Under the pieces are notes generated by a model. It saw nothing but the letters and a program-made list of their open reading frames with translations. It did not search any database and was not told the origin of the DNA. The position numbers and the translations under genes were made by a program. A stretch of DNA of 64,000 nucleotides from Artemia franciscana (taxonomy: Eukaryota; Arthropoda; Branchiopoda; Anostraca; Artemiidae): NCBI RefSeq assembly GCF_032884065.1, contig NC_088864.1, forward strand, positions 19,795,999-19,859,998, given 5' to 3'. How positions within the stretch are numbered: position 1 is the first letter of the stretch; every line of letters begins with the position of its first letter. Of this stretch, positions 18,101 through 33,100 are shown one piece after another.

Positions 18101-21100
18101 GAATTAAAATAAACAATCGGAAGACTTTTTGCATGTGTCAGATCTCTGCTTTTTATTCATTCCACCAGATTGGAATACACTTCTGAAGTGCATTTGTGGG
18201 CTTATTTGTATCAACAATTGCACCATCATGTTAGCGCCACTGGGAAGTTCTTTAATTTTTCGTCTATGACTTTTGTGTCTTCTTTTTGACTTCTCAAATT
18301 TTGTGTTTCCCAGCGTTCTGATAGTGAACTTCTTCTGATAGTGAACCGGTTGCCAGTTGCGTACTCCAAATATAATCTGCCGGACTCCAACTTTGGAAGA
18401 AGCTCTAGGAATTTCTAGAACTCCTTTGAAAATGGCAAAACTATTTTGCGTCGTTTTTTCACTTTTAGTATTATATTCTCAAGTTTATGTCATGGTATTC
18501 TTCCTTTAATCAATAATACGCAGACGATTTCGTTAATGCAAAGTTTTCTCCAAAAATATATTTTACTTAATTCCAATCCCTCTCGACTCTTAAAATAGCA
18601 CTAGAACTTCAATTTCTAAATGAACAAGTCATCTCTTTTAGTTTTCGCGACCACTAATTTCAACATTAAACTTAGGATGGATCTTTTGAAAGCTACCATC
18701 TCCATATCTGTAAATTTAGGGGATGGAAATTCAATAAATTTAGGGTGTGAGGATAAAAGAAAATTAATTTTTTTCAGATTTGGATAACCATTCCAAAGAG
18801 GTAATTTATTATACCTAATAAATTTACCTAATAAATTAAGAGGCAATAAAGTAACAATAAGACTAAATAAAGGCTAATAAAAGTAAGAGCCAGTCATTGG
18901 ATCTGGCTTGCTTTTTAGAAGCCGTACAAGAAGTAGCGGACGGAAACCAGGTAAAAATATCTAAAAATTATTTATTTTTGACTTTTAAGATGATCCTAAT
19001 GCCTTTTCATAATGATTTATTTTCCCACCATCTACAAAAGATTATAGTGGAGCAAGGAAAAGTAAAAGAAAAACTAAATACACCAATATAAAGAAACACT
19101 GTCCTATGAGAAAACATTTTCAAGTTTATGTCATGGTTTTCTTCCTTTAATCAATAATACGCATACGATTACATTAATGCAAAGTTTTCTCCAAAAAATA
19201 TATTTTACTTAATTCCAATCCCTCTCGACTCTTAAAATAGCACTAGAACTTCAATTTCTAAATGAACAAGTCATCTCTTTTAGTTTTCGCGACCACTCAT
19301 TTCAACATTAAACTTAGGATGGATCTTTTGAAAGCTACCATCTCCATATCTGTAAATTTAGGGAATCGGAATTCAATAAATTTAGGCTGTGAGGATAAAA
19401 CAAAGTTAATTTTTCAATCTTGGAATCCATTCCAAGGAGTGGCTTTAAACTGCCCCATACAGGTCCACAGGTCAATATAAACTTATTTTGAAAAGAAACA
19501 ATAAATTTGAGTAAATATAACTTCTGTTAATAGAAAATGTGTTTTTTTTTAAAGAAAAGCAAGAGATAGAGATGACATTTCTTCCAGTGCTTGGACCTCA
19601 TTTCCTCTATTAACTAATTTTGACCTTAAGTTATGAACAATTTTGTTTTTACATTTTTTATTATGAATGATTCAAGGACCCAAAGAGACACTCTTGGACA
19701 TATAACCCCAACAACCCTCCTTCTTATTTTTTCTTCAGTGACCTTCAATCGGTAATGACGGTACTGCAACGGAATCGACAATGCATTTGATGAACTTTTC
19801 AGTTCATAAAAAAAAAAAAATAAGAAAAAGTTCATAACACAAGGTCCAAGCCTTAAGTACCTATCCTAACCTATGTACTCAATATTCAAAAATTATTTGA
19901 AGACCAATCAAAGGAGAGTGTTTTAATCAAATCAAGACAACATAAATTTTGAAAGTTGAAACCAAATGCTTCCTAATAAAATATACACTCTGACAATTTA
20001 ACACGATCCTTCTTGGGCTATTTTCTTATGGTAACATTTCTTTGAGTAAAGCTCTTTGAGGGATTTTAACTCTTCTTCGAGCACTACCTTCTTCTTCTTC
20101 AATAACCTAAACTTTGCTTCAAGTTCTTGTTCCTCGTTTCTTCTTCTTTTTCTGTAGGCACGGGCGGCTTCCTTGTTCCGTTCCTTAAGATTTTTTAAAC
20201 ATTTTACAGCATTTTTTGAAGCTTTCATCTGGTCTTTTTTACATATATTGTTTGTCTCTGTATAGGTAGGATTTGCACTGGCACTGCTGCTTTCATCAAT
20301 ATTAGTATCCATTCCAGATGAACAAGGTGAAATTCCAACTGCAACAACTGAGCGACTACCACAACCTGGTAGTGACACTGCGGGTATAGCTCCTTCAGTA
20401 CTGCTGTTTATATTCATACTTATTTTATCAGTATCTGTTGATCACTTCCTAAGACGAACTAAAACTTGATTGCCTATTTTCTCCTTTATATGCATGAACA
20501 TTTTGTTAGGCCCCGCCTACTTGACTGCTTCATTCAATGACGTCATCTTATATTATTTTATTTCTACCTATTCAGCTTAGGACTTCTATTGCACAATGAC
20601 ATGACGTCATAAAAAAATAAAAAACCTCATGGTGACCAAAGCAATTCATAAATTAGATTTTCGCTAACAGGGGTAATTGTTTCGGTAATATCCTCTTTGC
20701 GTAGTCTGTTCTTTTCTTCAAATTACATAAAATGTGGCGATAGAATTTTAAAGAAATGAAATCATCGGAGGGGGGAGTGGGTCAAATTTAAGGGGAAGAT
20801 ATAACAGATTCAGTCAATCATGCGAATCCACCATACAGTACGTCCTTTCAAAGTTTCAAATATTCTAGATACAGTTCTTCCCGCAGTTTTCACCCCATAG
20901 TCAATAAGTGTTAAATTAGTAGAGAATTAGGGGTCTCCCATATATTATTTAATAACTAAGTTTCACCGTACCGAAATAATCGTCAAGATAGTTGAGGGAG
21001 GGAAGTAAAGAAGATAGTTCTCTCTCTCAAAAATTCAATTTTCAGTTTTTAATTTGCAAAATATAAAAATTAATTTAATTTCAGTAGATTTAAGCCCTGA

Positions 21101-30100: not shown

Positions 30101-33100
30101 ATTCTGCCATCCAATTCACCTTTTTAAATTTGTGTCAAATGTAGCACCGATTTCTCTTGAAAGAATTTTTCTCATAGGACAGTTTTTGTTTTTCAAGAAC
30201 ACGCTTTTAAACTTTCGAGTACTATAAGATGGGGGTTCTTTTTGGACTCATTTTCACTAGAAACAATATTTCAAACACAAAAAAGTTTTTGGCTTTTTCT
30301 TAGCCGGAGTATAGTTTAGAGCAAACTCATTTTTTGAAGCTACTGCTCTTTACTACGAGGGTATACACACAACAGCTTCAGCATGATTTAATATAGCATG
30401 TCATACATATAAAACAGAGAAATTAGAGGAAAAACATTTTTTTTGAAAAGTTTGTTTTATACTTCAATTTTACCAAGACGAACTTGTGAAAATCACGTGA
30501 GTATAAGCATTAGCTTCCACAATAGCCAACTCTACCTCTTGTGGCAGCCTAGCAGCTGTGTCAAAGTTGTGAATAGGGGGCTCTTGCTATTTTGAAAAGT
30601 AGTAAAGTCATGAGAATGAAACTTTCAAACGTAAATTCACAGCGGAAACAAAACAACAATGTTTTGTTTTCCTTTTACAGTTTTACAAGTATTGATAATA
30701 AGTATTTAACTATTCTTTGATTTAAGATGTTGCATGTCGACCGAAGAATTTAACATTTAAATCAGATTTTAACAATTAATCAATTTGATTTTTCAAGCGG
30801 CTTTTTTGTTTATTTGTTTTGTATTTTTTTTTTATACGTTTTGAATTGTATATATTTTGTTTTACATTAGGACCAGTGTTCATTACACATGGCAAGCAAC
30901 TGTAAAAGTAGTCTCACCCGAAATTGGATAGAGATGATGCATTAATATATCCATACAAACCAAAAAGCCGAAAAAGTAGTATCGATGAAATATCTAGAAC
31001 AGGCAATTAAATACTAAGGTCGGTGCTGCACAAAAACTGATTAGTTGCCATTAAGCTGCGCCTGGAAACTATCAAGACTAAAGTTCAGTCCCGGCTGTCG
31101 CAAGGATTAAAGTTAGGGATCAGTGAACTTATGAATATTTTTTTTCCCCTGTTGCAGCATAGAGGATTGATGCTCAGCTTGGCGATATGGGATCCAGGGT
31201 TCGATCCCCACCGCACAAAGTTTAGGCAACAAGCTTTCAATTCATCCCTGTAAAAGCCTAGTATCTGAAACGTCGATTTGACGCCCTATGCACCAGCAAT
31301 GACTCCGGAGGATCTTTATCCTTTTTTTCCAATATAACCAAAAATTAACCAAAATTAAAACAAAATTAAAAATATAACCAAAAATTACCAATTAATACTA
31401 AGCTTGGTGTTACCCAAAAGCCACGAATAAAAATAATTGAAATCTACCAAGTGCAAAGAGGTTGAAAAAAAAACGATACTATGATATTGGAAATAAAAGC
31501 TGTTTTTGCTGGATGGTTTCCTTTGCATAATTTTGCCGAGTGTATGGCATCCCTGGACCTTTGAGTTAAAAGCTGTAAAAATACAAACATGAGTTTTCAG
31601 CGACATTGTGATGAATACGATGCTGGTCATTAATTGTAACCTTTGGAGTTCCTTCTGTTAAAGGGGCTATCAAAATAAAATTTAAAAAATTTGCAGATGC
31701 AGCAGGATAGATCTGTGTGCAACTAAAGACAGAAAAGAAGCAAAACTTTAGACAAATTCGAAAAGAAAAGCAAAACTGATGAAACTTTCAAAAAAGAAAC
31801 TTTTAAAGCAAAAGAAATACTGAAAGGCTTAATATAGAAAAAGAAGATAGAACACAGAATGGTTTGAATACCACAAAACATGAGACTACAAAATATGAGG
31901 CCACAAGCGTATGTAAAACACTCCCACCGCATTAAGTCTTCCTTTGTTAGGATGTGATTAAAATGTGACTTTTATATTGAACGGATCTTTTTACGTAGGT
32001 CAATTTACTGACTTCCAAAAATGATTTTTATTTCTTATAATATTTTAATTTTTATTGCACAAGTGTCTTTTCAATTCTTGTTTATCAAACAAAAATTCGT
32101 GAATACCATGCATTTTACATTAACTATCGTAATGTGTAAAAAATAAATCACGTAGCCTGTACATATACCTGTAATAGGGGCCTCTGGCCTTGACGATTCT
32201 TTTCGCCATTTTGGAACAAAGACTGTAATATCATTATGACCTCTTGATTTGAACCAATCCACGCAAATTCTCAGCCCACGGCAGGAAAATATTTGTTTAT
32301 TACCATGACTAAAAAGAAACTAGTCAATAAATCTACATAACAGAAAACAAAAACAGAAGTAGAAACAGATAAGGATGAGAAAGGGACAAAGAACAAATAT
32401 CCTCTACAGTCCTGCTGGTGCTTAGGGCTCAGACTGACGTTTCAGTTGCTGGGTTTTTTTTACAGGGAATTTAGGTGGGTTTTTACCACCCTCAGCCAGC
32501 GAGTACCGATCCATCGGCCCGGCATTGTGAGCAGAGCATCAATCTACTGTTATACCACAGAGTTATAGAGCAATACAGTGAAAAAACAATTTATATAGAA
32601 GCACATGACATAACCAAAACTTAAGGGGGAAACACCTTTTGATCAGTATGGATATGGATCTGTCTCATGAATAAACAACTGAACTATTTAAGTGTAAACG
32701 TGAAATTTATGCTAAATAGTTTTTGGGCCATAGGTATACAGTTGGAGCCATTGCATTAGCCTACAGAATTTTGAAAAATTATAATCAGAGAAAGGAAAAA
32801 CAGAAAAAAGATGACACCCCAAAAAGGCAAAATGACTGAGCTGCCAAGCTAGGCAAAGGAAAGCCCAAATATTTGAAACTATTTTCTGGGGACTGGAGTT
32901 AGTCCTTGTGCCACCAGAAAATACATTTACCATTATTAAGGAACTATTCCCCCCCCCCTGCAAAAAAAAATGACCAGCAACAAAAGAAAAAAATTACACT
33001 AAGCAATAGAAATAAAATTGAAATGAACAGAAATTAACACAAATAATTGTGGTGTTGCTGCCCCCCCCCCCCCCTTGCCATTTGCACTTACTAAATCCTG

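What the first reader, a model, noticed from the sequence alone, without database searches (positions are those of the whole stretch)
18812..30474. Triplicated intronless bZIP gene nested in a Regnase intron, each copy with its own CRE-bearing promoter-like block
Seen: three 139-codon ORFs with an exact N-x7-R-x9-L bZIP spacing and four heptad leucines. Each is preceded by TATA, GC box and two TGACGTCA sites at constant 64-bp spacing. Known: CREB/ATF-type bZIP dimers bind TGACGTCA. Inferred: the amplified factors may regulate themselves and each other, and possibly influence the host mRNA-decay gene. I know of no described case of this arrangement.
Basis: partly seen in the sequence, partly recalled or inferred. 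Interest (0 to 1): 0.82.

Follow-up and report, generated by a model that had tools for sequence, protein, structure and literature searches.

The report
Short CREB-like genes with CRE promoters
Brine shrimp carry a family of one-exon CREB-like regulator genes whose promoters hold the DNA sites such proteins bind, and three shortened copies sit in tandem inside an intron of an RNA-decay gene, an arrangement that looks like a self-limiting brake on cAMP-type gene control.

Summary
Three open 139-aa bZIP ORFs, each behind TATA, GC box and two TGACGTCA 64 bp apart, lie in tandem inside a 17.0-kb Regnase intron, on the Regnase strand. The genome matches Artemia franciscana. The promoter block occurs at the array, at two other loci and as one weak partial match, so it is no dispersed transposon. 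The array belongs to a family with at least ten loci in this genome; CREB1 is its nearest solved bZIP. All eight loci with open ORFs keep two or three CREs within 300 bp of the ATG; both decayed loci have none. The array copies lack an N-terminal stretch that the five long open relatives have. Best reading: CRE-driven, short CREB-like competitors with ICER-like feedback, made by DNA duplication and in-frame deletion. Transcription, binding and repression are untested; copies 2 and 3 show no measurable constraint between them. Unexpectedly, CRE pairs match 25,910 times in this genome (control 69), and three of three autonomous Helitrons read have five CREs just ahead of the transposase ORF.

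The parts
19998..20417 (-). bZIP ORF copy 1 (139 aa)
22323..22742 (-). bZIP ORF copy 2 (139 aa); His replaces Arg inside the basic region (AAHAYR)
26978..27397 (-). bZIP ORF copy 3 (139 aa)
20485..20490 (-). TATAAA of copy 1 (-73 from ATG)
22811..22816 (-). TATAAA of copy 2 (-74)
27465..27470 (-). TATAAA of copy 3 (-73)
20512..20517 (-). GC box core GGCGGG of copy 1
22838..22843 (-). GC box core GGCGGG of copy 2
27492..27497 (-). GC box core GGCGGG of copy 3
20538..20545 (.). proximal CRE, copy 1
20602..20609 (.). distal CRE, copy 1
22864..22871 (.). proximal CRE, copy 2
22928..22935 (.). distal CRE, copy 2
27518..27525 (.). proximal CRE, copy 3
27582..27589 (.). distal CRE, copy 3
20588..20597 (-). 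C/EBP-like site ATTGTGCAAT, copy 1 (same at 22914-22923 and 27568-27577)
18475..18812 (.). partial copy of the unit at the low end of the array
18865..21262 (-). tandem unit 1
21263..23665 (-). tandem unit 2
26033..28320 (-). tandem unit 3
23903..25996 (.). 2.1-kb stretch that forms the second half of the 4.65-kb repeat (second copy about 28558-30474); its 219-aa open frame has no Pfam match
18475..30474 (.). whole repeated tract
15169..32168 (-). Regnase (ZC3H12-type) intron between two NYN-domain exons

Best explanation
The array is a set of genuine young genes: the short-form branch of a family of one-exon CREB-like bZIP genes, seen here in one genome only because no other animal genome could be searched. 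A gene with its promoter was copied as DNA into a Regnase intron, lost two in-frame stretches (the N-terminal stretch and the middle), and was duplicated in tandem. Shown: open ORFs, bZIP domain, conserved CRE/GC/TATA block, loss of the N-terminal stretch, low copy number of the promoter block, constraint on bZIP against L009 and on CDS in copy 1 against 2 and 3. Inferred: CREB or family dimers switch the genes on through the CREs; the short products, with little more than a DNA-binding dimerisation domain, hold CREs without activating and so brake CRE-driven transcription, their own promoters included. That is the logic of vertebrate ICER, reached by gene duplication and deletion instead of an internal promoter.
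For: bZIP by Pfam and CREB1 nearest solved relative. Ten family loci from two searches of the held genome: 8 of 8 with open ORFs have 2-3 TGACGTCA within 300 bp of the ATG (dinucleotide shuffles: mean 0.006 or less, 0 of 500 with two or more, for each), proximal CRE at -128/-129 in five and -136 in L012; the 2 decayed loci L011 and L013 have none near the gene, L011 showing only partial matches. N-terminal stretch seen in 5 of 5 long open relatives and in 0 of 3 array copies. Promoter plus upstream DNA shared with L009 and L010, so duplication was of DNA, not cDNA. Array CDS: no indel in 3 of 3 comparisons while flanks have 7-18; CDS substitution 4.3% and 4.5% against flank 8.6% and 7.8% for copies 1-2 and 1-3 (p 0.0014, 0.011). 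bZIP dS exceeds dN for array against L009 (p 3.8e-5, 0.030, 0.022). ICER precedent: intronic promoter with four CREs, negative autoregulation (PMC3941242, passages).
Against: No transcript or protein evidence of any kind. Copies 2 and 3: dN/dS about 0.95 (3 syn, 10 nonsyn), CDS no slower than flank (p 0.24), promoter no slower than flank (p 0.31), and changes in the basic region (R to H in copy 2, A to V in copy 3). Within the array dS does not significantly exceed dN in any pair (p 0.18, 0.10, 0.58). Promoter and leader carry 2 indels in each comparison in about 200 bp, no rarer than in flanks. The residual 75 or so residues before the bZIP could still activate. Tyr stands in the basic region where host CREB has Cys, so CRE preference is not assured. 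The long forms show no recognisable KID, so their activator role is itself inferred. The eight loci are related, so they are not eight independent cases.
Confidence: 0.5

Rival explanations
1. The copies are passengers: a recent segmental duplication of a once functional gene, still open only because it is young, with no present function.
For: Copies 2-3 dN/dS about 0.95 and CDS no slower than flank; within the array dS over dN is not significant in any pair; basic-region changes in copies 2 and 3; two of ten family loci already decayed and a third (L012) has an open ORF but a degenerate bZIP.
Against: Copy 1 against 2 and 3: CDS and nonsynonymous rates below flank (p 0.0014 and 0.011; 0.0009 and 0.0039), zero CDS indels against 7-18 in flanks, CREs and TATA kept in all three. 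The two losses that made the short form both keep the frame, though chance alone would do that one time in nine.
Confidence: 0.27
2. The short proteins are activators or obligate partners in a positive loop rather than repressors.
For: They keep about 75 residues ahead of the bZIP, shared with L009 and L010, and a C/EBP-like site sits between the CREs.
Against: What they lost is the stretch that the long relatives share across a deep split and that occurs twice in L043 and L044 (read by eye).
Confidence: 0.15
3. The array works in cis on Regnase: the CRE block is an intronic enhancer or a source of transcriptional interference, and the ORFs are secondary.
For: All three promoter blocks lie in one Regnase intron, co-oriented with it.
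Against: CRE promoters accompany the gene at five other places on four contigs; whether Regnase-like genes lie near those was not searched. Conservation extends into the CDS.
Confidence: 0.05
4. The unit is a mobile element or element cargo.
For: In L012 the bZIP stop lies 60 bp ahead of a Helitron-type CRE cluster and STPR ORF; upstream of L043 lies repeat sequence shared with the L012 neighbourhood. Two parts of the array (18475-19540, 23903-25990) could not be searched genome-wide.
Against: Promoter block at 6 places (5 full-length, 1 weak partial) and upstream block at 5 places in 1.27 Gb. No long inverted repeats at the array ends among the 25 longest of 174 listed. L009 and L010 with about 14 kb on each side have CREs only in their own promoters.
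Confidence: 0.03

Closest known systems
ICER (inducible cAMP early repressor) from CREM
   Same: Short CREB-type bZIP lacking the activation part; clustered CREs in its own promoter; promoter sits inside an intron; predicted negative feedback.
   Different: ICER is a product of the CREM gene from the internal promoter P2 with four CREs (PMC3941242, passages); here it is a set of separate one-exon genes, in tandem, inside an unrelated gene, with two CREs each. Repression is not shown here.
CREB1/CREM/ATF1
   Same: Best solved-structure match of the family profile; the zipper end [10 protein letters not shown] of copy 1 and L009 is identical to the same genome's CREB-like exon L014 (copies 2 and 3 differ there).
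   Different: Only 20 of 46 positions of copy 1 equal host CREB, and 19 of 46 equal another host bZIP, L016; Tyr in the basic region; no KID found.
Helitron-borne transcription factor sites (heat shock elements in Caenorhabditis; PMC6927752, abstract and outline)
   Same: In this genome Helitrons carry clusters of one factor's site.
   Different: CREs instead of heat shock elements; binding not shown; the array promoters themselves show no likeness to the Helitron-bearing loci compared.

Membership tests
bZIP superfamily | basic region N-x7-R, x9, heptad leucines; Pfam bZIP above cut-off | tested here: met
   copy 1 bZIP_1 30.4 bits (cut-off 27.6) and bZIP_2 22.4 (22.3); copies 2 and 3 pass bZIP_2 only (22.4, 25.5)
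CREB/CREM/ATF1 subfamily | bZIP closest to CREB1 | tested here: inconclusive
   CREB1 leads (E 5.4e-4 against 0.03), but copy 1 equals host CREB at 20/46 and L016 at 19/46; no tree was built
CREB/CREM/ATF1 subfamily | kinase-inducible domain (RRPSY; motif recalled) | tested here: not met
   absent on reading A2; N-terminal 60 aa of L044 and L010 find no KID chain at E up to 10
ICER | bZIP with activation region missing relative to the long form | tested here: inconclusive
   a stretch of the long form is missing; that it activates is inference
ICER | CRE cluster in its own promoter | tested here: met
ICER | arises from an internal promoter of CREM | tested here: not met
   separate one-exon ORFs in a Regnase intron
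ICER | cAMP-induced and represses CRE promoters including its own | not testable with these tools
   needs expression and reporter assays
dispersed transposon | many copies of the unit | tested here: not met
   promoter and upstream blocks only; two other parts not answered

The most novel reading that the evidence does not exclude
The short CREB-like genes are a host answer to a CRE-addicted transposon: Artemia Helitrons drive their transposase from five- to six-CRE promoters and CRE pairs now match some 26,000 times in the genome, and the host has amplified activation-dead CRE binders driven by the same sites, so that whatever switches the Helitrons on also raises their competitor.
Probability: 0.1. 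Interest if true: 0.88.

Novelty: new variant of a known kind. Interest (0 to 1): 0.62.

Why it matters
If true, an ICER-type feedback repressor has evolved independently by duplication and deletion, in an animal known (general knowledge) for dormancy and stress tolerance, and its recent steps are still visible in three tandem copies and their longer relatives. Together with the CRE-bearing Helitrons it offers a testable case of how a signalling pathway's binding sites can be spread by transposons and buffered by new trans-factors.

Tried and rejected
Viral origin: one scan of IMG/VR with family alignment A1 gave 40 pattern matches and no relative. Transposon: not met. tRNA and Rfam (gathering threshold) scans of the window gave nothing. 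A first self-BLAST of the whole window did not list the tandem copies and was replaced by chunked queries. KID in the long relatives: looked for because an SRR...ILEDI stretch of L044 recalls it; not found. The library of open-access papers was searched for Helitron with CREB (1 paper, a cnidarian temperature study, listing only), Artemia with Helitron (5 papers, one relevant, PMC11492255, passages read), Artemia with CREB and diapause (6 papers, listings only), CREB retrogenes (1 unrelated paper, listing), intronless, tandem or nested bZIP genes (109 papers, 8 listed, 7 of them plant bZIP surveys and 1 on intronless grass genes), ICER (30 papers, 8 listed, one read in passages) and Helitron rewiring (8 papers, one seen as abstract and outline). 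None of what I saw describes this arrangement; the library lacks most subscription journals. Genome-wide spread of 18475-19540, 18820-19997 and 23903-25990 was asked for (and again 90, 91, 93, 94, 96, 98, 99) and never answered, so those parts are untested. No phylogenetic tree and no structure prediction were made.
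Full report
What was checked. The three ORFs, CREs and spacing are exactly as described. Each copy has TATAAA at -73/-74, a GC box at -100/-101, CREs at -128/-129 and -192/-193, and a C/EBP-like ATTGTGCAAT between the CREs. Pfam recognises a bZIP in all three, marginally in copies 2 and 3. Regnase is real: UBA_6 and NYN matches, and weaker CCCH and C-terminal ones, lie on the - strand. The missing NYN exon lies at 32169-32308 and reads into the next exon as PIT-DQE across donor 32168 and acceptor 15169, so the array lies in a 17.0-kb intron, on the same strand as its host.

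Where it is. The window lies on a contig of 67,337,973 bases in an assembly of 1,270,528,402 bases in 6,468 contigs. The A. franciscana assembly in PMC11492255 (passages read) has a longest scaffold of exactly 67,337,973 bp, 1,270,721,445 bp in total and 6,486 scaffolds. I take the species as settled.

Structure of the array. Tandem units run 18865-21262, 21263-23665 and 26033-28320, with a partial copy at 18475-18812; units 2 and 3 are each followed by a 2.1-kb stretch that unit 1 lacks, making a 4.65-kb repeat whose pieces are 95-98% alike. L009 and L010 share the gene, the 3' flank, the promoter and the upstream DNA at 69-78% identity in the longer pieces, and pieces of the 2.1-kb stretch match L009 and L049, the next 10 kb beyond L010. 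So the array came from DNA duplication of a gene with its promoter. Relative to L009 and L010 the array ORFs lack two stretches, and both losses keep the frame.

The family. A protein search of the genome gave 8 places and a bZIP_1 search 29 places from 150 of 224 candidates scored. Together they give ten family loci: the 3 array copies, L009 (298 aa), L010 (296), L012 (298), L043 (267), L044 (300), L011 (broken into several frames) and L013 (196 aa; compared with L044 it lacks the promoter and start region). A more distant one-exon bZIP at L045, with one CRE at -232 from its first ATG, was left out. Numbers are lower bounds. L012 has an open ORF but has lost the basic-region Asn and much of the zipper, and Pfam finds no bZIP in it. 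All 8 loci with open ORFs have two or three TGACGTCA within 300 bp upstream; shuffles average 0.006 or less and 0 of 500 reach two, for each. L011 has no intact CRE in the 4.1 kb held upstream of its start, only partial matches; L013 has none in 9.9 kb. The eight are related, so they are not independent; still, L043, L044 and L012 are about 30% identical to L009 in protein.

What was lost. The five long open relatives share, loosely and by eye, an N-terminal stretch of aromatic, acidic and Ile/Leu residues (around YENF...D...T...QADIL.DI in L009, L010, L043 and L044, more diverged in L012), which occurs a second time inside L043 and L044; none of the three array copies has it. I take it for the activating or co-activator-binding part; that is inference. 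It is not a recognisable KID.

Selection. bZIP, array against L009: dN 0.065-0.106, dS 0.30-0.50 (p 3.8e-5, 0.030, 0.022). L009 against L010: bZIP dN 0.091, dS 0.449 (p 0.001), N-terminal part dN 0.167, dS 0.215 (p 0.18). Inside the array: copy 1 against 2 and 3, omega 0.55 and 0.47 (p 0.18 and 0.10 for dS over dN), CDS slower than flank (p 0.0014, 0.011), nonsynonymous changes rarer than flank changes (p 0.0009, 0.0039), promoter and leader slower than flank (p 0.047, 0.0057). Copies 2 against 3: omega 0.95, CDS p 0.24, nonsynonymous p 0.27, promoter p 0.31: no sign of constraint, and little power. CDS indels 0, 0, 0; flank indels 18, 7, 11 in about 1,600 bp; promoter and leader 2, 2, 2 in about 200 bp, so indels are not rarer there.

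Dispersal. The 287-bp promoter block matches 6 places: 3 array copies, L009, L010 and a 76-bp weak match on C8. The 557-bp upstream block matches 5.

The unexpected background. The pattern of two CREs with 40-75 bp between them matches 25,910 times (the palindrome gives the same number on both strands; a cluster of several CREs counts several times, so clusters are fewer) against 69 for the reversed pattern. One 23-mer holding a CRE occurs 3,608 times, control 0. Helitron_like_N gave 7,436 candidates, of which 150 were scored and all 150 matched above the cut-off. I took 3 of those 150, chosen for long open frames: each has five TGACGTCA in 178-185 bp, the last ending 41 bp before the first ATG of the open frame that runs into the Helitron_like_N match. 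L012's neighbouring STPR ORF has six. What share of the 25,910 lies in Helitrons was not measured. The published assembly paper gives Helitrons as 8.81% of the genome.

Mechanism. Most likely the genes are CRE-driven and their short products hold CREs without activating. The nearest precedent is ICER, made from an intronic CREM promoter with four CREs that ICER itself represses (PMC3941242, passages). The resemblance is in logic; the origin differs. My estimates: real genes about 0.75, CRE-binding given real about 0.75, repressor rather than activator about 0.7; the stated confidence of 0.5 is for the account as a whole against its rivals. Effects on Regnase have no support beyond location. 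The link to Helitrons is a hypothesis with only coexistence behind it.

Caveats. No expression data. Copies 2 and 3 differ by 2-6% depending on the part and could in principle be two alleles laid in tandem, though there is no gap in the window.

Noticed in passing
L053:1672-1849, L054:1822-1999, L055:1921-2105; L012:5142-5280: Three of three autonomous Helitrons read carry five CREs directly ahead of the transposase ORF (L012 neighbour: six); genome-wide the CRE-pair pattern matches 25,910 times against 69 in the control. Not described in the papers found.
   Followed up: partly
L020, L021, L023-L029, L033, L034, L036-L039, L041: A second bZIP family (NRKAAKKLRDKKK or close) at 16 or more dispersed places, 87-99% alike in the longer matching pieces and up to the full 3.2 kb fetched, open frames 87-265 aa with acidic N-terminal repeats in those read, no CRE in the fetched stretches; it may be mobile.
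   Followed up: partly
L044:4168-4423 and L043: The N-terminal stretch of the long relatives occurs twice within the same protein (by eye).
   Followed up: no
window 17144-17193 and 17396-17446: A 51-bp direct repeat flanks a 200-bp stray copy of part of the array unit.
   Followed up: no
window 13289-13570: Mos1-type HTH_48 fragment in another Regnase intron.
   Followed up: no
window 58560-60974: Long LINE-type reverse transcriptase ORF, 804 aa stop to stop.
   Followed up: no
window 17672-17802: Dispersed repeat with a tRNA-like B box (read by eye), also at L010, L045 and L051; probably a SINE.
   Followed up: no
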